DNA of 28,304 nt from JAWOFN01 sp046497505 [NCBI: bacterium] (GTDB lineage Bacteria > Blakebacterota > Blakebacteria > Blakebacterales). The stretch is taken from assembly GCA_046497505.1 (NCBI GenBank), contig JAWOFN010000115.1:1-28304 (forward strand), read 5' to 3'. The translations under genes and the position numbers were made by a program. Below the pieces are notes generated by a model. That model made no database searches. It was not told where the DNA came from and was given only the letters and a program-made list of their open reading frames with translations. How positions within the stretch are numbered: position 1 is the stretch's first letter; each line of letters opens with the position of its first letter. Below are positions 88 to 26,911 of the stretch, piece after piece.

Positions 88-1869
88 TCAGCGCAGGTCA
101 ACGGAACGGCTGACCGTCCCCCCCTTCTGACTCCGGTAGGTGAGGGTCACACTGCCGCTCCCCGAGACGATCCAGCGCACCCGGATCTCTCCTCTCCCGG
201 GTACGCCCGACTCGATGGACAGATGCGCGGGGTCGTGCTCCACAAGGCGGATCTGCTCTCCGAGCGAGCCGGAGACGTATCCTCCGGCCTCCACCTCGAC
301 CCGGCGTCCTTCGATGGTGAAGGAGTCGGGGAGCCCGATGCGGTTGATCCGTGCGATGGACGCCCGGCTCGGGATGGCCTTCGGGTTGACGACCGTCGCG
401 GTGACCTGCCAGGTGTCCCCTTCCAGCCGCTCCACCTCCACCTGGTCCATCTGGACCATGGGCATCTGGTCGGCATGGAAAAGGGCGAACATGGCGTTCC
501 GATGGCACATTTCCTGGAGCATGAAGGGCACGGTCACACGGTTGAAGTACTTGCTCCAACCCCCGACTTCGATGGTCCCGTATTCCGGATGCTCCACCTC
601 GTGCCAGTCCACGTACCATGCGCCCAGGCCCAGGCGGTCGTTGTAGAATAGCATCCGCTTCTCGGCCGGGACCGGAGCGTCCTCGTCCCACGCCTCGTTG
701 AAGTACTGGTTCCTGGACCACAGCTCGTTGCTGAAGGAGAAGATCCCCAGCCCGTCGTACGTCCAGTCGATGAAGCCTCCGTAGACCGTGTAGAGGTCGT
801 CCCATATGATGTAGTAGTTGTAGTAGGGGAGGATCAGCTCGCCCCGCTCGCCGATGTAGTCGTACGCTCGGATGTCCTCACGGGGATAACCCGCACCGTC
901 CCGGTAGGAGGAGGCACCCGGCCCCCTCAGGATCATCCCGCCGCTGTTGTGCCACGACTGGACCCCCGCCACGTTCGGGTGGGCCAGCAGGAACTCGCCG
1001 ACCGCCCGGGCCTCCGGGTGACTGAAGGGGTACCAGTGGGCCCCGCGCTGGATGTAGTCCGGCTTCCAGTCGGTGGGCCAGTTCCGGTTCAGGTCGTAGC
1101 CGCCGGGGCCGTCCTCGTTGATCCGACCATCCCCGTCGTTGTCGATCCCCTCGCTTCCCAGCATGGTCCAGTCACCGGTCTCACCGGGTCCCACCCGCAC
1201 CATGAGGCGGGGGTCGACGTCACTGACCTTCATGTTCCCCCGTCCGGGAGTGTACTTGCGCATCGAGGTGATGTGGCCGTCCCCGTCCAGGTCGTCGTAG
1301 CCGTCCTCATCGGCTCGGCCGTCGTTGTCGCTGTCCAGGGGACGCACCCCGCTCCGGCTGCTCGAGGAGGTGTTGGCCTCCTCGAACCAATGCTGGCGGC
1401 CGTCGGGGTTCTGGGTCGGGAGGACGTAGAAGGCCCGCTCGTCAACCAGCCTGCGGACCTCGGGCATCTCGTAGTTCTCCATCAGGAACCAGATGAGGTA
1501 GAGGTTGATCTCCACTCCCTGGATCTCGTTCCCGTGGATGTTGCCGTCCACCCAGAAGGCGGTCTTCTCCTCATGGGGTCCGGTATCCGGGTTGTTGACG
1601 ATCATCAGCCACATGTCGCGGCCTTCCCACGACTTACCGATGCTCACCAGTTCGAGGAACTTCGGATAGGCCTGCTCCAGTTCCCGGAGTACCTCCTCCA
1701 TCTGGGGGAAGCTGTAGTAACGGTCGAACCGGAGGTCCACCTTGGGGTCCTGGACCGGTTCGGCGAAGAAGGACTGGCCCGGGGCGGCTCCGGCAGCGGC
1801 GGTCACGAGGCCCGCCGCCAGGAGCGCCGCGGACAGCAGCCTCCGGACATTCATCAGACGGTTCGTCAT
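88..1869 (-). CDS. Secreted M14 family zinc carboxypeptidase (catalytic residues intact)
   Basis: This 593-residue protein begins with a Sec-type signal peptide (residues 1 to about 30), so it should act in the periplasm or outside the cell, removing C-terminal residues from peptides. The M14 zinc motif HGNE gives ligands H112 and E115. The third ligand is H307 (SWHNSGG), the carboxylate-binding pair is N261-R262 (DLNRNWP), and the general base is E382 (SNELW). Two Asp-rich DxDxDG loops (about 179-201 and 243-255) resemble calcium-binding loops inserted before the active-site strands. The region after about residue 460 looks like a beta-rich accessory domain. The ATG at 1869 follows AGGAGG with an 8-nt spacer and lies 12 nt after the stop of the upstream paralogue, so the two are cotranscribed. 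Family assignment is firm; the substrate is unknown. Confidence 0.93.
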   Translation of the reverse strand: MTNRLMNVRRLLSAALLAAGLVTAAAGAAPGQSFFAEPVQDPKVDLRFDRYYSFPQMEEVLRELEQAYPKFLELVSIGKSWEGRDMWLMIVNNPDTGPHEEKTAFWVDGNIHGNEIQGVEINLYLIWFLMENYEMPEVRRLVDERAFYVLPTQNPDGRQHWFEEANTSSSSRSGVRPLDSDNDGRADEDGYDDLDGDGHITSMRKYTPGRGNMKVSDVDPRLMVRVGPGETGDWTMLGSEGIDNDGDGRINEDGPGGYDLNRNWPTDWKPDYIQRGAHWYPFSHPEARAVGEFLLAHPNVAGVQSWHNSGGMILRGPGASSYRDGAGYPREDIRAYDYIGERGELILPYYNYYIIWDDLYTVYGGFIDWTYDGLGIFSFSNELWSRNQYFNEAWDEDAPVPAEKRMLFYNDRLGLGAWYVDWHEVEHPEYGTIEVGGWSKYFNRVTVPFMLQEMCHRNAMFALFHADQMPMVQMDQVEVERLEGDTWQVTATVVNPKAIPSRASIARINRIGLPDSFTIEGRRVEVEAGGYVSGSLGEQIRLVEHDPAHLSIESGVPGRGEIRVRWIVSGSGSVTLTYRSQKGGTVSRSVDLR

Positions 1870-1881
1870 GGCCAGAGCCTC

Positions 1882-3630
1882 CTAGCGCAGCGTGATGGTT
1901 CGGGTGATGGTCCCGCCGGCCTGCGGGGCCAGCACGGTGAGCTGGATCCGCGTCCCGGCAGGTGCCTTCACCAGCCACTCGACGGTCGATCTCCCTCCCG
2001 ATCCTTGCAGGTTCCGAACCTGGTCCTGGATGTTCCCGGTCAGCACATCGAAATCACCGGGCTCCAGGCGCAGTGTGACGGGGGGAGCCGTCCGGGAGCG
2101 CAGCCCCATCGCGGTGGCCGTCGGCAGGTAGCCTTCGTTGACCACCACCGCCTTCACCAGGAAGATCCCATCGCCCCGGGTCTCCGCCGCGGTCTCCAGG
2201 AGCTCCACCGACGGGAGCTGGTCACCGGCCCAGACCGCGAACTCGGCGTGTTTCCGGGCCAGTTCGGCGATCTCGGCCGGTGGCGGGTTCGTCCGGATGT
2301 TGGGAACGAAGCCCCCGACCTCCACCTGACCGAGCTGGGGGTGGTCCACCGGGGTCCATCCCACGAAGCCGTCCACCCCGGCGGCCTCGAACCAGGCCAG
2401 CCAGGCCTTCTCGTCCGAAGAAGGACCGCGGGCCGTCGGGCGTCCCCGGGGTCCCGTCTCCTCCGCACCCCGTGGAAGGGTCCATACGGGGGTGGTGAGT
2501 GAGATGCGTCCGAGCTGGAAATAGGCGAAATCGTGCCAGGCACCCCGGGCACCGGATGCCCCGCTGCCGGAGAGGCCGGTGATCTCATCGAACTCGTCCG
2601 AGAACCAGGCCAGGTAGTCCGCGTCCTGCGAGAGGATCCCGGAGGGAGCGCTCTGCTGTCGGAAATAGTTGCGGACCTCCTCCATGCTCACACCGGGCGG
2701 GATCTCCATCCCTTCGGGGATGTTTACCTGTGCCTGCCGCTCGCGGGTACCCTGGGGCACCTGGAGCAGGTTGTCGTAGGGGCTGAAAGTCAGGAAGAGG
2801 GTGATGTTGGGATGGGTGAAGGTGAAGTCGGCCAGGGCCCTCGTCTCCACCTCGCTCACCTGGTGAGGTCCGGCGTGGTCCTGGTAGAAGGGGTATTCAT
2901 GGGGCCAGTTCATGTTGAGGTGGGTCCCGCCGGGACCGTCCTCGTTGTACTCCCCGTCCCCATCGTCGTCGATACCCTCGGTGTAGAGGGTGTACGTGCC
3001 GCGCTCACCCCTGCTGCGGTCGGCGCGCTTCATGAGCCGCTCGTCGTCGGGGTCGGACATCCACACACCCTCGGGGTCGCGGACGCGCATCATGGTGACC
3101 AGGCCGTCGCCGTTCAGATCGTCGCCGCCGTCCTCGTCTGCCTCACCGTCCCGGTCCTCGTCCTCCGGATCCGGCTTGAAGGGCATCTCCAGCCCGGGCC
3201 GGGTGAAGAACCACTCGGCGCCGTCCGGGTTGAGGCGGGGGATGACGTAGACGGTCCGGCGGTCCAGCAGGTCGGTCACCGCCTGGTCGCTGCCGTAGCG
3301 GGAGGCCAGGTGGTCCGCTAGGTAGAGGGCGGTCATACTGCCGATGAGGTGGTTGGCCTCGAGGTTGGCCGTCACCAGCATGGCGGGCTTGGCGTCCGCC
3401 TCACCCCGGCCGCTGAGGGTGACGAGCCAGACCTCCCGTCCTTCGGCGGTCCTCCCCAGGATCTCCAGGGATGCTGCCCTGCTGTCCTCCACTGAGCGAA
3501 GGAGGCGTGTGAGGCCGTCATAGTCCAGATAGTCGTCATATGAGCCGGTCTGGGCAGATGCGGGGCCGGCTCCCGCGAGCAGTCCTCCCATGAGCAGGAG
3601 GATCGCCGCACGCAGGCGAGGTGACGTCAT
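1882..3630 (-). CDS. Secreted M14-like protein, probable pseudoenzyme
   Basis: This 582-residue paralogue of the downstream M14 peptidase has a signal peptide (residues 1 to about 26) and the same layout: M14 core, two DxDxDG calcium-type loops (about 154-178 and 219-231) and a C-terminal beta-rich part. Aligned by eye to its neighbour, the zinc motif HxxE is replaced by ExxH (E91, H94 in LEANHLIG). The third zinc ligand is Ser283, the substrate-binding Arg is Met240 (HLNMNWP), and the catalytic Glu is Pro381 (TTPVW). Normal M14 hydrolysis is therefore unlikely. The fold and flanking motifs such as LNPDG and NWP remain, suggesting a retained binding or partner role. The ATG at 3630 follows AAGGAG. 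It is the first gene of the operon. Confidence 0.88.
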   Translation of the reverse strand: MTSPRLRAAILLLMGGLLAGAGPASAQTGSYDDYLDYDGLTRLLRSVEDSRAASLEILGRTAEGREVWLVTLSGRGEADAKPAMLVTANLEANHLIGSMTALYLADHLASRYGSDQAVTDLLDRRTVYVIPRLNPDGAEWFFTRPGLEMPFKPDPEDEDRDGEADEDGGDDLNGDGLVTMMRVRDPEGVWMSDPDDERLMKRADRSRGERGTYTLYTEGIDDDGDGEYNEDGPGGTHLNMNWPHEYPFYQDHAGPHQVSEVETRALADFTFTHPNITLFLTFSPYDNLLQVPQGTRERQAQVNIPEGMEIPPGVSMEEVRNYFRQQSAPSGILSQDADYLAWFSDEFDEITGLSGSGASGARGAWHDFAYFQLGRISLTTPVWTLPRGAEETGPRGRPTARGPSSDEKAWLAWFEAAGVDGFVGWTPVDHPQLGQVEVGGFVPNIRTNPPPAEIAELARKHAEFAVWAGDQLPSVELLETAAETRGDGIFLVKAVVVNEGYLPTATAMGLRSRTAPPVTLRLEPGDFDVLTGNIQDQVRNLQGSGGRSTVEWLVKAPAGTRIQLTVLAPQAGGTITRTITLR

Positions 3631-16388: not shown

Positions 16389-18953
16389 TTAAGTCCCCTT
16401 CGCACGCTCCGGGGAAAGGGGTCCTGGAAGGGCTGGCGAGGGTACCGGGGACGCTCCGGCTGAGAGGAGAGGGAAGAGGAGCCAGAGCAGGCCCAGCACG
16501 CTCATGATCCCGCCCCAAAGCAGCCCGGGCAGCCGGAAGCGGAAGGTGACCTCTTGGGTCCCCGCCTCCAGGGGGAGGGCCTGCATCACCACGTTGGCCG
16601 AATGCAGTCCCGTCGGTGCCCCGTCCACCTCCGCCCGCCATCCGGGATAGGGGGCCTGTGAGCGCACCAGCACCCCGGGACGGTCGCTGTCCACCCTCAG
16701 GCGGATGCGGTCCGGTCCCCGTGACAGCAGTTCGATCCGCCAGTCGGGTGAGGTCCCCTCCGCCGGTATCCCGGGGGGTGGGGGAGGAGGCGCTGGGGCG
16801 GGTCCGTCACCGCCGTCGGGGAAGGGACCCAGTACCACGGTGGCCGAGGGATCGAACCCCCCTGCCGCCATCCACGCGAAGGCGGCGGAATCACCGGGGG
16901 CCGTCGTCCAGTCGTAGACCATCTGCCAGGGGCGGAGGGCACCCCGCTGTTCCAGTACCAGCAGGGGAGGGACAGGGGTGGTCGGGTCGGGGGGCCGGCG
17001 GTCGGTGGGATAGAGGGCCCGCATCCCCGGCATGTGCTGGAGTCGCCGAGCGGTCTCCGGATCGGTGAGGAGGATGTAGCGGATCCCCAGCACGGCAGCC
17101 AGGGGCGGACGGGACACCTCCGGGGCCCGGCGCCATCCCGCTTCTGCCCGGGCCAGGGATCGGATGCGCAGGGCGGAGAGGCCGTCGAAGGTACGCACCC
17201 CCTGGAGGGCGGCCACGTTGGGGAGGAGCCACTTCCGGTGCAGTCGGAGCAGGTCCCGGTGGTCGGTGAGGAGGGGGAGGGGCCCCTCTTCCCGATCGGA
17301 GACGGTCCAGCGTGCCGCCCGGCCGGCCGGGTCGGTCTCCAGCATCGCCCGAGCGGCGGGAACGGGACGCTTGAGCTCGTCGAGGGAGGCGGTGGGGAAA
17401 TATCCCTCCGCCCCGACGAGGAGTTCGGCGGCCACCAGCAGCACCACCGCGGCGGGTGCAGCCCTGCGCAGTACCCTCTCCTCCTTCCTGAGGGCCCAGC
17501 CGGAGAGCACCGCCGTGAGGCCGGTGACGGCGAGTCCCAGGACCTGGCGGTCCCGATAGCCGCCGACACCCGCTCCCGGGTGACGGAACTCCAGTCCGGT
17601 CCACCGCAGAAGGGTTTCGTAGACCCCCTGATCCGCCGCAGCCAAGAGGGCCGCTCCAGCCAGGACCGTCCCCCCGCCGACCATCAGGAACAGGGGGAGC
17701 CGGGAGCGCATCCGGGGCAGGACCGCATGGTCCATGCCCCGGCGGCGGCCGTTGACGCTGTGGAGCCCCCATCCGGCGAAGCAGGAGAAAGCGGGGAGGA
17801 GCATGAGGAGGTACTTCTCGTCGAAGCGGTAATAGCCGCTGCCCGGTATCAGCCGGTCCAGCCGGCCTATCAGGGGGAGGCCCCCCCCGAGACCCAGGAG
17901 GAGGGTGAGGAGGGTCAGGATGGTGAGTACCGACCGGTCGCCGGCGGGGGTGTGACGCCAGCCCGCCGCGGCCAGGACCAGGACGGGGACCCCCATGTAG
18001 AGACCGGGGAGATAGTGGGCCCGGACCTGGCCGGTGATATCCACCCAGGATGTCAGGCTGCCGGGGTCCCAGGCGTGCCAGGGCATGATCAGGCCGAGGA
18101 GGCGTCCGGGACCGGTGAAGAAGGCCGCCGACTCCGCGGTACCCACCCCGGCGGTCCGGGTGGTCCGGAGGATCAGACCGACGGCGGGCACCAGCTGGGC
18201 CCCCGCAAGCAGGAGTGCGCCGGTCCCCACCACGAGGAATCCCAGCAGGACCGGGCCGAGGCGTTCGGCGGGCCGGGGCGGGATCCCGAACCCCGGTCCC
18301 GGTCCCAGGTAGACACGGGCCGAGGCGTACGACCAGAAGGGGAGCAGGAAGAGGGTCCACAGGAGTATCTCCAGCCCCCCGCAGAGGAACATGGCAGCCA
18401 GGGCCGCTGCAGCCCCCCGCCGGGGCCAGCTCGCCCCGGCCTCCAGTCCCCTGGGGAACCAGTGGAGCACCCAGGGAAGCCAGGCGAGAGCGAGGGACAG
18501 GCTCACCAGGGAGCCGCTGCTCACCGACGGGCCGGCGGCGAGGTAGACGAGCCCCGCCATCACGGCGGGCCAGCGGTCCGCGCCCCTGCTCCGGAGGAGG
18601 ACCGTCATGCCCAGTGCCCCCCACACCATGTGGAGCCAGCTCACCAGGGCGAGACCCGTGCCCAGGGGGAGGAGCACCAGCAGCAGGTGGGGGGGGTAGA
18701 AGAGTCCGAACTGGGGGTTGGCCGCGACGGGGATCCCCCCCTGGACCGCGGACCACCACTGGGGGAGCAGGTCCCCGGCACGCCAGGCAGCCGACAGGTG
18801 CTCCCGCATGGGGAGGAAGTAGGCGGCCCAGTCCCCCAGCACGAAGGTACGTCCGGGTAGCCAGGCGGGACCGGTGAGGACCAGGGCGGCCAGCCCGTGG
18901 ATGAAGAGGGCGGTCCGGACGGTCTTTCGGGGCTCGGTGCCCGTACCGCTCAC
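16389..18953 (-). CDS. YfhO-like multi-pass membrane protein (GT-C type)
   Basis: This 854-residue protein has roughly a dozen hydrophobic helices in its first 500 residues, an extracytoplasmic region of about 270 residues, and a last helix near the C-terminus (LLWGGIMSVLGLLWLLFPLL). An acidic motif after the first helix (LGDWAAYFLPMREHL) and the C-terminal APYPGWRAEVDG segment are typical of the YfhO family. In that family, members transfer sugars from lipid carriers to cell-wall polymers outside the membrane. An unusual proline run (about residues 718-728) links two parts of the extracytoplasmic region. It begins with GTG whose TG is shared with the TGA stop of the preceding gene (GTGA overlap), so translation is coupled. 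The family is likely; the acceptor is unknown. Confidence 0.82.
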   Translation of the reverse strand: MSGTGTEPRKTVRTALFIHGLAALVLTGPAWLPGRTFVLGDWAAYFLPMREHLSAAWRAGDLLPQWWSAVQGGIPVAANPQFGLFYPPHLLLVLLPLGTGLALVSWLHMVWGALGMTVLLRSRGADRWPAVMAGLVYLAAGPSVSSGSLVSLSLALAWLPWVLHWFPRGLEAGASWPRRGAAAALAAMFLCGGLEILLWTLFLLPFWSYASARVYLGPGPGFGIPPRPAERLGPVLLGFLVVGTGALLLAGAQLVPAVGLILRTTRTAGVGTAESAAFFTGPGRLLGLIMPWHAWDPGSLTSWVDITGQVRAHYLPGLYMGVPVLVLAAAGWRHTPAGDRSVLTILTLLTLLLGLGGGLPLIGRLDRLIPGSGYYRFDEKYLLMLLPAFSCFAGWGLHSVNGRRRGMDHAVLPRMRSRLPLFLMVGGGTVLAGAALLAAADQGVYETLLRWTGLEFRHPGAGVGGYRDRQVLGLAVTGLTAVLSGWALRKEERVLRRAAPAAVVLLVAAELLVGAEGYFPTASLDELKRPVPAARAMLETDPAGRAARWTVSDREEGPLPLLTDHRDLLRLHRKWLLPNVAALQGVRTFDGLSALRIRSLARAEAGWRRAPEVSRPPLAAVLGIRYILLTDPETARRLQHMPGMRALYPTDRRPPDPTTPVPPLLVLEQRGALRPWQMVYDWTTAPGDSAAFAWMAAGGFDPSATVVLGPFPDGGDGPAPAPPPPPPGIPAEGTSPDWRIELLSRGPDRIRLRVDSDRPGVLVRSQAPYPGWRAEVDGAPTGLHSANVVMQALPLEAGTQEVTFRFRLPGLLWGGIMSVLGLLWLLFPLLSAGASPVPSPALPGPLSPERAKGT

Positions 18954-20776
18954 GTCGTCTCATCCTCCCGGTCCACATCCCCGTCGCGGCCGGGGGGAGA
19001 GCCCCTCATCTCCTCCTCGATGACCTCGTCCAGGGAAGGGCCCCCCCGGGGTCGGAGCAGGCCCCGTTCGATGAGGGGGTCGGGACGGTAGAGGAGGCCC
19101 CAGCGTTCCGAGACCGCCTGGAGACGGGAAGCGGTCCGCTCCTCGCCCAGGCTCCGGGCCGCGCCCAGCAGTCCCCCGCGGAAGGGGGGGGCACCCAGCA
19201 TGAAGACGTCCAGCAGGAGCCAGCCCTCTTCCACCGGTTCGGCCACCAGGTCCCAAAGACGGGACATCTCGAGGGCCATGACCGAGACCACCTCCTCGAC
19301 GAGGCGCTCCTCGGCCTCCTCCGCGTCGGGGGAGGGAAAGGCTTCCGGGGAACGCTCGGGGAGCCGGCGATAGGGGAGGGTATCCAGGCGTTCCTTCCAC
19401 GCGGGGCCGAGACGGCGGAGCAGACCGAAGGGCCCGGCGTGCATGCCCCAGCCGGTCAGGACCCCGTCGATGCGTTCCCGGCTCCATCCCTCGGCGACCA
19501 GCCGCTCCCCCTCCCGGAGGAAGGAGGCGGCCAGGGCGAGACCCGGGGAGGGTTCGGCCAGATAGCAGAAGACACCGAGGAGGTCGGCGGAGGCCAGCAG
19601 GTGCCGGGCGGCGTCCTCGAAGGGGTCGGGCGCGCCGGCGGCAGGGAACCAGGTCACCTCGGCCAGCAGCGGAGGCCGGGCGCAGGGCAGCCTCCGGAGG
19701 AGTCCCGCCCCGCCAGACACCTCCATGGCGGGGACATCCCCTCCGGGGACCGTGCTCCCCCCGGCCTTCAGGGGCGGGGCCATGAGCTTCCCGAAGCGCT
19801 CGGAGACATCTGCGGGGACCTCGAGTCCCTCGGCGCGGTCCCTCCGCTCCCCCTCCCGATCCCCGCGGGGACGGCGCAGGGCTTGACGGGCTCGCAGGAG
19901 GGCCAGCAGGTGCCGGTGGACCTCGCCAGAGACCAGGTCCGCAAGACGGCGGGCCTCTTCTTCCAGCCCCTCCTGCAGGGGGGTCCCGTCGGCGGCGATC
20001 CCCACGGCCTCGATGACCCGGGAGGGGGCGGGGTAGTGGCCCCCGGTCCGCTTGCGTACGGCCTTGCGGTAGCGGTTCCGGAAGGCCCGGCGGCCCAGGC
20101 CGGTGCCTTCCATCAGCAGCTGGAGGGGACGGAAGCCCATGCGACGGGCGGGGGGGCGGAAGCGTCCGGAGCGGATCTCCTCCACCAGGTCCGCCGCCTC
20201 GGCGTGGAGCCGCTCCCGGGACACCACCCGGTCCACCAGACCCCACTGCAGGGCCTTCTCGGCGTCTACCGCCTGACCGGTCAGGATCATGTCGAGGGAC
20301 CGGCGCTGTCCGATGAGCCGGGGCAGACGCTGGGTACCTCCCCATCCCGGGAGGATCCCGATATGGACCTCGGGGAAGGCGAGCCAGCTCTCCTCCGCTG
20401 CGGCGATGCGGGTATCGCAGGCCAGGGCCAGCTCCACCCCCCCGCCCAGACAGCGACCCTCGATGGCTGCGATGACGGGGAAGGAGAGATCGGCGAACTC
20501 CTGGAAGAGGAGCTGGCCCTCCCGTGAGGCCTCGTAGGCCTCCTGCCAGGCGTCCACCTCCTCCATGGCCGACACGTCCGCCCCGGCCTGGAAGTCGCCG
20601 CCGGACTCGGCGGCGAAGACCAGCCCCCGGGGAGGGACCTGGCGGGCCTCTTCAGCCAGTCTCCTGAGGTCGGCCATCACCCCGCGGGTGAGCAGGGGCG
20701 GTCGGCGACCCTCAGGGGTGAAGAAGGCCCAGAGGATATCGTCCGTTCGTTCGGTGCGTAATCCCATGTCCCGCAT
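18950..20776 (-). CDS. FadJ-like protein: enoyl-CoA hydratase domain with degenerate dehydrogenase domain
   Basis: Residues about 10-200 form a crotonase domain with the oxyanion motif QAGAD and both catalytic glutamates, E115 (GGGVE) and E136 (FPEVH), so hydration of enoyl-CoA looks possible. A FadB/FadJ linker (HYPAPSRVIEAV) follows. After that, only about 60 residues occupy the place of the NAD-binding Rossmann domain. No GxGxxG motif is visible, and the HFFNP-type catalytic His segment reads RRLPCARPPLLAEV (361-374), without His. The C-terminal 3-hydroxyacyl-CoA dehydrogenase helices remain (WGMHAGPFGLL, about 443-453; APPFRGG, 529-535). At 608 residues it is about 100 shorter than FadJ. 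No thiolase gene is adjacent. No good ribosome binding site marks the start; Met4 is an alternative. It overlaps the YfhO-like gene by GTGA. Confidence 0.83.
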   Translation of the reverse strand: MRDMGLRTERTDDILWAFFTPEGRRPPLLTRGVMADLRRLAEEARQVPPRGLVFAAESGGDFQAGADVSAMEEVDAWQEAYEASREGQLLFQEFADLSFPVIAAIEGRCLGGGVELALACDTRIAAAEESWLAFPEVHIGILPGWGGTQRLPRLIGQRRSLDMILTGQAVDAEKALQWGLVDRVVSRERLHAEAADLVEEIRSGRFRPPARRMGFRPLQLLMEGTGLGRRAFRNRYRKAVRKRTGGHYPAPSRVIEAVGIAADGTPLQEGLEEEARRLADLVSGEVHRHLLALLRARQALRRPRGDREGERRDRAEGLEVPADVSERFGKLMAPPLKAGGSTVPGGDVPAMEVSGGAGLLRRLPCARPPLLAEVTWFPAAGAPDPFEDAARHLLASADLLGVFCYLAEPSPGLALAASFLREGERLVAEGWSRERIDGVLTGWGMHAGPFGLLRRLGPAWKERLDTLPYRRLPERSPEAFPSPDAEEAEERLVEEVVSVMALEMSRLWDLVAEPVEEGWLLLDVFMLGAPPFRGGLLGAARSLGEERTASRLQAVSERWGLLYRPDPLIERGLLRPRGGPSLDEVIEEEMRGSPPGRDGDVDREDETT

Positions 20777-22319: not shown

Positions 22320-22513
22320 GGACTCTAGCAGAGCCTCCCGCGCCCTGTCACGGCCAGCGGACCGCGCAGCGCCGGGCCGTGTTCGTGTAGCGGGAATCCA
22401 GCAGCCACAGGCTCCCGTCCGGGGCGAATGCCATCTGGTTGGCCGGCTCCTGGAGGGTCCAGGCGGCGATCAACCTGCCGTCCCCGCCGTAGACCTCCAT
22501 GCGGACCAGGCCG
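22320..22513. repeat. Direct repeat copy A: 3' part of tandem beta-propeller genes
   Basis: This segment aligns without gaps to 23519-23712 at an offset of 1199 nt, with about 14 mismatches by eye in 194 nt. It covers the last 160 or so coding bases of the propeller gene plus about 28 nt after its stop. The similarity continues less strictly through the gene. Confidence 0.85.
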
Positions 22514-23448
22514 GTGGTGTTCCCCTCTTCGAACCGTGTGTCCGAGGCCTTCTGGCCGAGGAGCGCGGTGATTACCCAGAGACGTCCTCCACCATCGTAG
22601 GCGATGTCGAACGTGACCGGGTCGGCTGCGGCACGGACCGCACCCGGATCCCGGACGGCCATCTCCGGCGTGCGGGGGGTGAATGCGAGCTCACGGGTGA
22701 TCACCCTCTCCAGATCCCCCGTGCCCGCATCGTAGATCCGGATCTCATCGAAGTAATGGAACGCGACGGCCACGCTCCCGTCTTTCCCCGCGGCTCGGAT
22801 CGTGTTGACCAGGACTCGGTTGCGGGGCTCCTGAACCGGCTTCGGTTCACCGAAGGTCCTGATCAGATCCCCCTCGGAGTCGAGGATCTCGACGAGGGGC
22901 GGGAGGGGAGGGTAGCCGGCGCCGGGTCTGACCTCCATGACCACCATGTCGCCCGTACCGGCCCTCATGTAGCGGTCCTGTCCGATCGGGACGGGGGTGG
23001 CACCGGTCAGGACCTCTCCGTCCATCGGCTCGCTCTCCAGGAACGATCCCTCGGTGGTGAAGAAGCTGATACGGCGGTTCATGAGGTCTTTCACCGCGAG
23101 CCGGCCGTCGGGCGTGAACCAGCAGCCCGCCGGCATCTGGAACTCCCCGGGGCCGCCCCCTTCCTGACCGACCCGCCCGAGGAAGGTGCCGTCGGGGGCG
23201 TACATGTGGATGGCCTTGTTGCCCCGGTCGGTCACATAGAGGGTCCCGTCCTCGCCCACGGTCATCTGCCGGGGACCGTACAGCAGGGCCTCCTCGGAAC
23301 CCGAGGCGCCCACCCGGACCTGTACGGTCAACTCGGGTGGCGGCGCCGCCGGCCGGAAGGAGTTCCGCACAGTCGATACGTCCTGGCCCTGTACGGAAGG
23401 GGCCAGGAGGAGCAGTCCGAAGACCGTTCCTGACATCAGTCGATGCAT
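22348..23448 (-). CDS. Secreted 6-bladed beta-propeller (NHL-like) protein, copy 1
   Basis: This 366-residue protein has a signal peptide (residues 1-22, ending VQGQ) and NHL/6-bladed propeller repeats, the clearest being GTLYVTDRGNKAIHMYAPDG and the following GQEGGGPGEFQMPAG. Others centre on FDEIRIYD, GGRLWVIT and DGSLWLLD. No catalytic residues are recognisable; such propellers usually bind ligands or partners. The ATG at 23448 follows GGGAGGAA. It is a tandem duplicate of the gene just upstream (23547-24671), with a 98-nt gap. It ends 35 nt before the glycosyltransferase fusion on the same strand, so readthrough into that operon is possible. The C-terminus CAVRWP is shared with the paralogue. 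Confidence 0.9.
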   Translation of the reverse strand: MHRLMSGTVFGLLLLAPSVQGQDVSTVRNSFRPAAPPPELTVQVRVGASGSEEALLYGPRQMTVGEDGTLYVTDRGNKAIHMYAPDGTFLGRVGQEGGGPGEFQMPAGCWFTPDGRLAVKDLMNRRISFFTTEGSFLESEPMDGEVLTGATPVPIGQDRYMRAGTGDMVVMEVRPGAGYPPLPPLVEILDSEGDLIRTFGEPKPVQEPRNRVLVNTIRAAGKDGSVAVAFHYFDEIRIYDAGTGDLERVITRELAFTPRTPEMAVRDPGAVRAAADPVTFDIAYDGGGRLWVITALLGQKASDTRFEEGNTTGLVRMEVYGGDGRLIAAWTLQEPANQMAFAPDGSLWLLDSRYTNTARRCAVRWP

Positions 23449-23518
23449 CTGGGTTCCTCCCTCCTCGATCCGACCGCCCTCTTCGTGCCGGCGGACGGGG
23501 CTGCCGCAGAGTCAGGGA

Positions 23519-23712
23519 GGACCCTACCAGAGCCCCCCGCTGCCTGTCACGGCCAGCGGACCGCGCAGTGCCGGGCCGTGTTCGTGTACTGCGAATCCAG
23601 CAGCCAGAGGCTCCCGTCCGGGGCGAATGCCATCTGGTTGGCCGGCTCATCCAGGGTCCAGGCGGCGATCATCCTGCCGTCCCCGCCGTAGACCTCCATG
23701 CGGACCAGGCCG
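23519..23712. repeat. Direct repeat copy B: 3' part of tandem beta-propeller genes
   Basis: This is the partner of 22320-22513 (about 93 percent identity by eye, no gaps). The duplicated unit extends past the stop codon into the intergenic sequence. Confidence 0.85.
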
Positions 23713-24671
23713 GCGTATTCCCCGGTCTCCTCCCTCTCCCCGGTGCCCGCCTCATCGAACAGCGAGGTGATGACCCAGAGGCGCCCGTCCGGGTCGAAGG
23801 CCACATCCAGGGTCACCGGGTCGGCGGCAGCGGTGGCCCGGACCGCCACATTCCCCTCCCCGACATCCCGGGTCTGCATCTCCAGCTTCGGCTCCCGGGG
23901 GGTGAAGGCCAGCTCCCTGGTGATGATCATGTCGACCTGGCCGCTCTTCACATCGTAGATCCGGATGTCGTCGGCGAACCGGAAGGCGGCGGCTACCTGT
24001 CCCCTGTGCCCGGCTATGGAGACGCTGTTCACCAGCATCCCCGCCCGCCGGTCCTCGACCGGCTTCCGCTCCCCGAAGCTCTTCAGCGAGCGGCCCTCGC
24101 CGTCCACCACCTCCAGGAAGGGGGGTTCGGAGGGTGCGCCGCCCGGCCCTTCCCTGCGCATCACGACCATCCCGCCGGTATTCGCGGTCAGGTAGGTGCC
24201 GTCCCCCAGCGGCTCGAGCACCGCGCTGGTCATGAGCATCCCATCCAGCGGCTCGCTCCGGAGGAACTCCCCGTCGGGGCGGAAGTAGCTGGTCCGCTGG
24301 TTCATCATGTCCTTCACGGCCAGCAGCCCGTCGGGGGTGAACCAGGAGCCGGCGGGCATCTGGAACTCGCCCGGGCCGCCCCCCTCCTGGCCGATCCGCC
24401 CCAGGAAGGTGCCGTCGGGGGCGTACATGTGGATCGCCTTGTTCCCCCGGTCGGTGACGTAGAGGGTCCCGTCGGGACCCATGTTCAGGTGACCGGGCGT
24501 GTAGAAGAGGGCCTCGTCCGGTCCGCTCTCCCCCACCACGGTCAGCACCTCGAGCGTGGGGGCAGGGCCCGCCGCCTCGAAGGGGTTGGCCACCACCATC
24601 GGCTCCTGGGCCCCGGCCGCGGCGGCTGCGGCGATCAGCAGGGTCAGGGACAGGGTCGTCAGACGCTTCAT
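23547..24671 (-). CDS. Secreted 6-bladed beta-propeller (NHL-like) protein, copy 2
   Basis: This 374-residue paralogue of the downstream gene has an Ala-rich signal peptide (residues 1-21, ending AGAQ) and the same propeller repeats (TLYVTDRGNKAIHMY, DDIRIYD, DGRLWVIT, DGSLWLLD). Start choice: ATG 24671 has GGAGG 6 nt upstream; an ATG two codons earlier overlaps that site and is less likely. The two copies are almost identical in the first blade and at the C-terminus. They diverge in the middle, for example in a Glu/Gly/Thr-rich loop (about residues 310-325) that is different in the other copy. It is the first gene of the long minus-strand run. No catalytic motif is seen. Confidence 0.9.
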   Translation of the reverse strand: MKRLTTLSLTLLIAAAAAAGAQEPMVVANPFEAAGPAPTLEVLTVVGESGPDEALFYTPGHLNMGPDGTLYVTDRGNKAIHMYAPDGTFLGRIGQEGGGPGEFQMPAGSWFTPDGLLAVKDMMNQRTSYFRPDGEFLRSEPLDGMLMTSAVLEPLGDGTYLTANTGGMVVMRREGPGGAPSEPPFLEVVDGEGRSLKSFGERKPVEDRRAGMLVNSVSIAGHRGQVAAAFRFADDIRIYDVKSGQVDMIITRELAFTPREPKLEMQTRDVGEGNVAVRATAAADPVTLDVAFDPDGRLWVITSLFDEAGTGEREETGEYAGLVRMEVYGGDGRMIAAWTLDEPANQMAFAPDGSLWLLDSQYTNTARHCAVRWP

Positions 24672-24866
24672 GCACATCCTCCGGTTCCGCGCAGGGTCGG
24701 ATCCATCGCTCATCCCTGTATCGAACGAGCCGGTCTCGGGATGGACGAGATCTTTTCGCCGTTGCCCCGCGGGGGAGCAGGCCGTTCCCTTCAGGACATG
24801 GGCAGAGGAACCAGACAACAGGGATCGGACGGGGACCGGGCGGATACCCAACCCAGGAGGGGCACG

Positions 24867-25694
24867 GTGGCCGAGGTGGAGGTGGAACGCCTGGGCACCA
24901 ACGGCCGCGGGGTGGGGCGGCTGGATTCCGGCATGGCGGTCTTCGTGGAAGACGGGCTGCCGGGACAGCGCGTGCGGGCCCGCCTCCACAAGGTGAAGAA
25001 GAGCTTCGCGGAAGCACGCATCGAGGAGGTCCTGGAGGAGAGTCCCCACCGGACCGAGCCCCGATGTGTCCACTTCTTCACCTGCGGAGGATGCCGGCTG
25101 CAGCACCTGGACTACGCCGCCCAGCTCCGGGCCAAGACCGCCCAGGTCACCGACGCCCTGGAGCGGATCGGGCACTTCGACGATCCCCCGGTACGGGACG
25201 CCCTGGACAGTCCCGATGCGTGGGGCTACCGGAACAAGATGGAGTACTCCTTCGGGGACGTCCGCTGGCTGACGAAGGAGGAGATGGGCGCGGAGGAGGG
25301 GAACGTGCAGCGCGACTTCGCCCTGGGGCTCCACCCCCGGGGCCGGTGGGCCCAGATCCTCCACCTTCAGGAGTGTCATCTGCCCCATCCCCGGTCGGTG
25401 GAGATTCTGAAGGCGGTCCAGGACCGGACTGCCGGGAGCCGGTTCGCACCCTACTCCGGCAAGACCCACCGGGGCTACTGGCGTTTCCTCATCACCCGGC
25501 AGGGGGTACGCACCGACCAGTGGCTGGCGGACATCGTCACCGAGGACCTGCCCGACGCACATGGTGAGACCGAGGCCCTGGCCCGGGGCCTGGAGGAGAT
25601 CGGAGGCAACCGTTACTGTCTCGATCTCGTTCAACCGATCGACCTGCTCCCCCATACGCCCCATGTGGAGTGTGTGGCCCGGCTGACCGCCTGA
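24867..25694 (+). CDS. RumA/RlmD-like protein lacking its methyltransferase core
   Basis: This 275-residue protein starts at GTG 24867 (AGGAGG at 24855-24860, 6-nt spacer). It has a TRAM RNA-binding domain (about 1-58) and the 4Fe-4S ligands of RNA uracil-5-methyltransferases, C67, C73, C76 and C170, with the C-x5-C-x2-C pattern of E. coli RumA. The central RNA-binding domain follows to about residue 228. Then the sequence jumps to the family C-terminus: LARGLEEI, then VQPIDLLPHTPHVECVARL. The SAM-binding motif, the DPP motif and the catalytic SCNP cysteine, about 170-190 residues in all, are absent. The frame stays open across the join. It may be an in-frame deletion pseudogene, an assembly collapse, or a retained RNA-binding Fe-S protein. 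Methylation by this chain alone is not expected. Confidence 0.82.
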   Translation: MAEVEVERLGTNGRGVGRLDSGMAVFVEDGLPGQRVRARLHKVKKSFAEARIEEVLEESPHRTEPRCVHFFTCGGCRLQHLDYAAQLRAKTAQVTDALERIGHFDDPPVRDALDSPDAWGYRNKMEYSFGDVRWLTKEEMGAEEGNVQRDFALGLHPRGRWAQILHLQECHLPHPRSVEILKAVQDRTAGSRFAPYSGKTHRGYWRFLITRQGVRTDQWLADIVTEDLPDAHGETEALARGLEEIGGNRYCLDLVQPIDLLPHTPHVECVARLTA

Positions 25695-25732
25695 TGAGTC
25701 GCGGACACGCGATCGAACCCTTGGAGTCCATC

Positions 25733-26911
25733 ATGGCCCGACCGACCACGACGTCCGTGCAGAGCCATCTTCTTTTCCTCATGCTCCCCCTCTTCCTGCT
25801 GACCGCCTGCGGCGGGGGCGAGGAATGGGGAGGGCGACTCGAGACCGTGGACGGGGTGAGCCATCTCTACAACCCGGATACCGCGGCCTGGGGCATGGAC
25901 TGCGTGCCCCTGGTCCAGGAGGAGGTCCTGGGCGGTACGGCGGGTCCGGAAGAGGCGCTCCTGAGCTCGCCTGTGGCCGTGGCGGTGGGGACGGATGGGA
26001 CCCGCTACGTCCTGGACCAGGCGGACCACCGGGTCCTCCGCTTCGATGGACAGGGGGACTACCTGGGGAGCTTCGGCCGGGAGGGGGAGGGTCCCGGGGA
26101 GTTCCTCGATCCGGCGGACCTGGCGCTGCTGGAGGACGGCACCCTCGTGGTGACCGACTACGGGAACGGGCGGGTGGGCCTCTTCGATGCCGGGGGCACC
26201 TTCCTGCGTTCGTTCCGGGCCGGGGCCCAGGCCGGGCAGGTGGCCGAGGCCGGCAACGGGCTCCTCTACATCACGAGCCAGCCCCGGAGCATGATGATGA
26301 TGGCACGTCTGGGGACTGTTGAGGATGAGGAACCCGCACTGGTGGAGCAGTACGACCTCCAGGGTGCGGTCACCGACCGCCTCGGGACCCCGGTGGACTC
26401 GGAAGGGGTGCTGCTTCCCAGGTGGAAGAACAAGATCTACATCGCTTCCGCTCCCGATGGGGCCCTGCTCCTGAACTGGATGCTGGACGACCGCATCCAG
26501 GTCTTCTCCCCCGGGGGCGAGCTGATCCGGGTGGTACACCGCCCCGTGGCCTTCGAGCCCCGGGAACCCACCGAGGAGACGCAGGGCACGCCGGAGGGAG
26601 GGATGAGCTTCCAGTTCGAATTCGACATCCTGGCTGTGGGCATGGCGGTCCGTCCGGACGGCGAGATGATGGCCGTCACCACGGCCCTGGACCCCACCGA
26701 CTTCCGTTTCCGGGAGGAGCAGGAGGAGGACCCCCGGCCCTCCCGGTGGGCCATCGACCTCTTCGACGACGCCGGGCGCTGGCTGGCCCGCTACCCCACG
26801 GGGGAGGAGATGCCCGCAGCGGTCCTGGACTGGGGAGCGGACGGGCTCTATGTGATCAACCACCAGGGGGACGCCAGCGTCCGGCGCTTCTCCATCGTGC
26901 AGCCGCAGTAG
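25733..26911 (+). CDS. 6-bladed beta-propeller lipoprotein
   Basis: This 392-residue protein has a lipoprotein signal peptide with lipobox LTAC, the lipidated residue being Cys26. It should be anchored in a membrane facing the periplasm or surface. Propeller repeats include [23 protein letters not shown], in shortened form [13 protein letters not shown], then [11 protein letters not shown] and [15 protein letters not shown]. It is clearly related to, but more divergent than, the tandem pair at 22348-24671. The ATG at 25733 (GGAG 6 nt upstream) is chosen because it gives a proper lipoprotein signal; an ATG at 25694 overlaps the stop of the preceding gene (TGATG) and is the alternative. It is probably cotranscribed with the RumA-like gene 38 nt upstream. 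Function is unknown. Confidence 0.88.

What the first reader, a model, noticed from the sequence alone, without database searches (positions are those of the whole stretch)
24867..25694. RNA uracil-methyltransferase relative without its methyltransferase core
All four Fe-S ligand cysteines, the TRAM domain and the exact family C-terminus are present, but roughly 170-190 residues with the SAM site and catalytic Cys are missing, and the frame is open across the join near 25548-25590. Its good ribosome binding site and intact cysteines argue against simple decay. It may be a very recent deletion, an assembly collapse, or an RNA-binding Fe-S protein with a new role.
Basis: partly seen in the sequence, partly recalled or inferred. 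Interest (0 to 1): 0.6.

Follow-up and report, generated by a model that had tools for sequence, protein, structure and literature searches.

The report
rRNA methyltransferase gene missing its middle
A common bacterial gene for an enzyme that puts a methyl mark on ribosomal RNA has here lost its catalytic middle in one in-frame step, apparently so recently that the rest has not decayed; it is most likely a freshly broken gene or an assembly slip, not a new kind of protein.

Summary
ORF 24867-25694 (+, 275 aa) is an RlmD/RumA-type 23S rRNA m5U methyltransferase that keeps the TRAM domain, the four Fe-S cysteines, most of the central domain and the last ~26 residues. About 188 residues are missing in frame, with the SAM site, DPPR and the catalytic cysteine; the lost part lies nowhere else in the window. 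The break falls inside two domains, where the sequence fits both flanks (nt ~25568-25613). What remains looks like a normal full-length enzyme: 28 of 29 near-invariant columns kept, root-to-tip rank 24 of 36, and the orphaned C-terminus about as close to consensus as in full-length relatives. So the loss looks young, without sign of a new role. Best reading: a recent in-frame deletion allele without methyltransferase activity (0.6); an assembly join is next (0.25). A working core-less RNA-binding protein is not excluded but has no positive support beyond an intact frame. The host genome is not held and no close relative was reached, so reads, paralogue and sister strains are untested.

The parts
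24867..25694 (+). core-less rlmD-like ORF, 275 aa, GTG start
24855..24860 (+). AGGAGG ribosome-binding-site-like sequence, 6 nt before GTG
   Evidence: sequence read
24873..25022 (+). TRAM domain (residues 3-52)
   Evidence: Pfam PF01938, E 9e-12
25065..25094 (+). Fe-S ligand cysteines C67, C73, C76 (fourth, C170, at 25374-25376)
   Evidence: invariant columns of the 30-row alignment; ligand role from RumA (PMC5614603, passages)
25095..25586 (+). rest of the N-terminal part, with an incomplete central domain; the helix at residues 83-100 probably packed on the lost catalytic domain (recalled from the RumA structure, not tested)
25568..25613 (+). deletion junction; ~188 codons missing; exact point ambiguous because both flanks fit
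   Evidence: two-sided profile alignment, 14 best splits after residues 234-249; pLDDT under 50 at residues 242-252
25614..25691 (+). last 26 residues of the RlmD family (two C-terminal strands of the lost methyltransferase domain)

Best explanation
It is a recent in-frame internal deletion allele of an ordinary rlmD gene. About 564 nt were removed, perhaps by slippage or illegitimate recombination between two stretches that look alike (both encode a helix like ALARxLEE). Shown: the missing segment, the kept frame, the ambiguous junction, the ordinary rate in what remains. Inferred: the mechanism of loss, that the deletion is real in the population, and that the product, if it folds, cannot bind SAM or methylate U1939, so that the position is unmethylated unless another gene does it. 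Loss is probably tolerable because rlmD is lost or dispensable in some bacteria (literature).
For: Core motifs are absent while the flanks align in order. The break points do not respect domains: in RlmCD the central domain is 128-261 and the catalytic one 281-454 (PMC5614603, passages), whereas the window aligns to residue 214 of RlmCD (envelope to 224) and again from 422. The orphan C-terminal strands keep 62% identity to consensus (rank 24 of 37, median 65%; 26 columns), and the window's root-to-tip distance ranks 24 of 36. Of 49 near-invariant columns 28 are matched, 20 fall at gaps of the window row and one is a substitution (F261L); so 28 of 29 outside the gaps are kept (two of the 20, next to the junction, depend on how the junction is aligned, and one of them would then be a D-to-G change). 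rlmD loss and what appears to be a pseudogene are reported in Mollicutes (PMC7226160, passages).
Against: No read data, no sister strain and no host genome could be examined, so the full-length parent at this locus was not seen. The frame is kept, which a random deletion does one time in three. No other lesion was seen in the ORF. The window's terminal branch is long (0.72, rank 8 of 36), so 'recent' is relative: a deletion some way back on that branch with continued constraint would look much the same in the N-terminal part; the argument rests mainly on the 26-residue C-terminus.
Confidence: 0.6

Rival explanations
1. Assembly artefact: the cell has a full-length rlmD and the contig joins the two flanks wrongly.
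For: No whole genome is held for the window, so it may be a metagenome contig. The retained part looks like that of an active enzyme. The junction is a GC-rich stretch that fits both flanks, and an imperfect 15-nt direct repeat (87%) lies at 25539-25553 and 25569-25583. Another gene of the window, the FadJ-like one, also lacks a core, though it is much more diverged.
Against: Some neighbours match their profiles end to end: PFOR over 2-1167 of 1167, gamma-glutamyltranspeptidase over 2-511 of 512; not every neighbour was checked. Assemblers usually need a longer exact shared word to join two places (general knowledge); no long exact direct repeat was found in 25300-25760, but the parent DNA is unknown.
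Confidence: 0.25
2. A working TRAM + Fe-S RNA-binding protein without methyltransferase activity, for example an RNA chaperone or a competitor at the U1939 region.
For: Intact start signal, TRAM, four cysteines and frame. AlphaFold2 gives a confident model (mean pLDDT 89.4; 93 even in the block 261-270 of the C-terminus) that superposes on RlmCD (256 residues, Z 20.9, rmsd 2.7). NCBIfam has a TRAM-only RNA chaperone model (29 bits here, below its cut-off of 85).
Against: The model is the parent fold with a hole, from an alignment with 29 full-length enzymes, so it does not show that the truncated chain folds; Foldseek's own superposition of the best hit gives only TM 0.70 and rmsd 9.4. The central domain lacks its end. 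No other relative with this architecture was found among those examined. No change of rate.
Confidence: 0.1
3. A second, redundant copy of rlmD is decaying while a full-length paralogue does the work.
For: Two RlmD-type genes on different contigs occur in many genomes of some groups (tables).
Against: The host genome is not held, so no paralogue could be looked for.
Confidence: 0.05

Closest known systems
RlmD (RumA), 23S rRNA m5U1939 methyltransferase, E. coli 1uwv/2bh2
   Same: TRAM, C-x5-C-x2-C plus a fourth Cys, central domain, C-terminal strands
   Different: ~188 residues with SAM site, DPPR and catalytic Cys missing
RlmCD of Streptococcus pneumoniae (5xj1, 5zq0)
   Same: best hit by sequence and by fold
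   Different: RlmCD has no Fe-S cluster (PMC5614603, passages) but has the full catalytic domain
rlmD pseudogenes (some Mycoplasma hyorhinis strains, PMC7226160, passages; L090 here)
   Same: loss of the methyltransferase by mutation of the gene
   Different: L090 carries a stop and a damaged cysteine motif; this ORF is still open. The M. hyorhinis gene was not examined here
TRAM-only RNA chaperones (NCBIfam PyTRAM, NF053605)
   Same: TRAM domain
   Different: score far below the family cut-off (29 vs 85 bits); extra Fe-S and central parts

Membership tests
RlmD / TIGR00479 | score over the curated cut-off | tested here: not met
   157.7 bits against 183.55
RlmD / TIGR00479 | TRAM domain | tested here: met
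   PF01938 E 9e-12
RlmD / TIGR00479 | four Fe-S cysteines | tested here: met
   C67, C73, C76, C170 invariant in A1
RlmD / TIGR00479 | SAM-binding motif, DPPR motif and catalytic SCNP cysteine | tested here: not met
   columns fall in the gap; not found elsewhere in the window
RlmD / TIGR00479 | C-terminal VQPxDxxPHTxHVE stretch | tested here: met
   weak alone
RlmD / TIGR00479 | methylation of U1939 | not testable with these tools
   needs an assay
PyTRAM RNA chaperone (NF053605) | score over the curated cut-off | tested here: not met
   29 against 85 bits
rlmD pseudogene | sister strain with the full gene at the locus | not testable with these tools
   no close relative reached in 485 genomes of seven phylum-level sets

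The most novel reading that the evidence does not exclude
A TRAM/Fe-S protein that binds the U1939 region of 23S rRNA without methylating it, made in one step by in-frame loss of the catalytic core and caught very early, before its sequence changed.
Probability: 0.07. Interest if true: 0.5.

Novelty: new member of a known kind. Interest (0 to 1): 0.13.

Why it matters
As a recent deletion allele it is one more sign that m5U1939 may be dispensable in nature, and it warns against reading an open frame with intact metal ligands as a functional protein. If the protein were functional it would separate RNA binding by the TRAM/Fe-S part from catalysis, and so test what the Fe-S cluster of RlmD is for.

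Tried and rejected
Host genome and its paralogue: not held. Sister genome: one scan of genome contigs confirmed 125 relatives and kept 80 loci at 30-45% identity; 485 genomes in seven phylum-level sets around those loci (419 with a match) gave at best 48% over more than 200 residues, and up to 56% over the first ~127. A further 60 genomes of the phylum of the Latescibacterota locus were searched with the family model. Viral contigs: none confirmed. Plasmids: 42 records with a match, all under 60% identity; I did not check these for a missing core.

Other core-less relatives: of the 80 loci, 76 run 422-557 residues from match to stop and carry DxPRxG. Two are cut by the contig end (L004; L062, whose SAM part has begun) and two are frame-shifted with the core present (L053, L066). 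Of the 56 loci L081-L136 from whole genomes, 52 gave a row (some repeat earlier loci; L095 and the three FadJ loci L114-L116 gave none). Of these 52, 37 run 335-469 residues to a stop (36 with DxPRxG; L094 without, but with the SCNP motif), 13 are cut by the end of the DNA held, L136 is frame-shifted with the core present and L090 is truly core-deleted, with a stop. The match tables were cut, and I opened only some short frames plus the best matches. 'open_frame_aa' is a weak filter in GC-rich DNA (the window's own frame is 785 codons), so absence of other core-less forms is not proven.

Rejected: core elsewhere in the window; functional exaptation as first choice. No long exact direct repeat marks the junction (which covered 25300-25760; an imperfect 15-nt one lies there); the parent DNA is unknown, so a repeat-mediated deletion is only inferred. 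No promoter-like site by the consensus scan, which says little for a host with unknown sigma factors. Papers: two searches (8 of 8 and 15 of 24 papers listed) showed no core-less RlmD in the titles and abstract starts listed; of papers only passages of PMC7226160 and PMC5614603 were seen.

Full report
What is there. The ORF at 24867-25694 reads 275 codons from a GTG with AGGAGG 6 nt upstream. Its first part is the N-terminal half of an RlmD/RumA-type rRNA uracil methyltransferase: TRAM domain (PF01938, E 9e-12), residues 9-240 on positions 1-220 of the 432-position RlmD model, and cysteines 67, 73, 76 and 170 in invariant columns. Its last ~26 residues are the family's C-terminus (52% identity over 27 residues with L001, 63% over 19 with L042; residues 422-448 of 5xj1, weak taken alone). 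Codon-position GC is that of a coding frame throughout, a little flatter after the junction (third position 0.89 before, 0.75 after).

What is missing. I aligned the ORF to a profile of 36 complete relatives (35 distinct) with one free jump: 405 against 338 without the jump, with 186-191 columns skipped at the 14 best splits. The junction can lie anywhere in about residues 234-249 (nt 25568-25613), because that helix fits the left flank (near the end of the central domain) as well as the right flank (the LARDL helix just after the catalytic cysteine). Lost are the end of the central domain, FFQTN, the SAM motif, DPPR and SCNP. Eleven full-length relatives find no further piece in the window (other hits E 0.13 or worse).

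Does the remnant look like a designed unit? No. In RlmCD the central domain spans 128-261 and the catalytic domain 281-454 (PMC5614603, passages); the window leaves the alignment to its relative inside the first and re-enters inside the second. AlphaFold2 gives mean pLDDT 89.4, 93 even in the C-terminal block 261-270, but under 50 at 242-252. The model superposes on RlmCD from end to end in the second-look aligner (256 of 275 residues, rmsd 2.7, Z 20.9), less well in Foldseek's own superposition (TM 0.70, rmsd 9.4). That is the parent fold with a hole. Because the alignment holds 29 full-length enzymes, this says where the parts came from, not that the short chain folds.

How old is it? On the retained columns the window's terminal branch ranks 8 of 36 and its root-to-tip distance 24 of 36 (midpoint root; 11 and 23 of 36 with the N part alone). 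Identity to consensus is 0.52 for the N part (rank 14 of 37, median 0.47) and 0.62 for the C-terminal piece (rank 24 of 37, median 0.65) (duplicate L086 left out of the tree but not of the consensus count). 28 of 29 near-invariant columns outside the gap are kept. Strands that belonged only to the lost catalytic domain would not stay conserved for long without it. So the deletion is young on the scale of a long branch (0.72), or is not real. The C-terminal argument rests on 26 columns.

Is it seen elsewhere? I found no relative with the same gap. Of 80 loci from the genome scan, 76 are full length with DxPRxG, and the other four are contig ends or frameshifts. Whole-genome searches covered 485 genomes with the window protein in seven phylum-level sets (419 with a match) and 60 with the family model (59 with a match, 38 over the cut-off). 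The short frames that I opened were contig ends or frameshifts, except L090. There an rlmD remnant runs in one frame with about 240 residues of the core gone, part of the cysteine motif gone and a TAG. That is an independent broken rlmD. The tables were cut and most places were judged by frame length only, so the survey is not exhaustive.

Against what is known. rlmD has been lost several times in Mollicutes, what appears to be an rlmD pseudogene is reported in some M. hyorhinis strains, and rlmD was not necessary in a transposon study of M. bovis (PMC7226160, passages). A young deletion allele is thus ordinary. It is not a member of the RlmD family by function: SAM site and catalytic cysteine were tested and are absent, and the score is below the cut-off. 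Its origin from an RlmD-type gene is not in doubt.

What stays open. The host is not held, and the best relative reached is 48% identical over more than 200 residues, so assembly error, a paralogue and sister strains could not be tested. I give a real, recent deletion 0.6, an assembly join 0.25, a functional core-less protein about 0.1, a decaying redundant copy 0.05.

Noticed in passing
window 18953-20776 (-): 608-aa FadJ-like protein: enoyl-CoA hydratase part intact (36% over 306 residues with a full FadJ, L114), NAD-binding Rossmann core missing, C-terminal part only 25% alike. A second enzyme of this window without its cofactor core, but strongly diverged and so probably old. In 27 other genomes no listed match extended past residue 321 (list cut).
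   Followed up: partly
   Followed up: partly
L062 (Herbinix MAG, 5986 to contig end): RlmD homologue with a long insertion of imperfect repeats (DQIEGADRIEV-like) between the central part and the SAM core.
   Followed up: no
window 22351-26908: three 6-bladed beta-propeller (NHL/DUF5128) genes around the ORF, two leftward before it and one rightward after it.
   Followed up: no
window 88-3630 (-): two adjacent M14 zinc carboxypeptidase genes.
   Followed up: no
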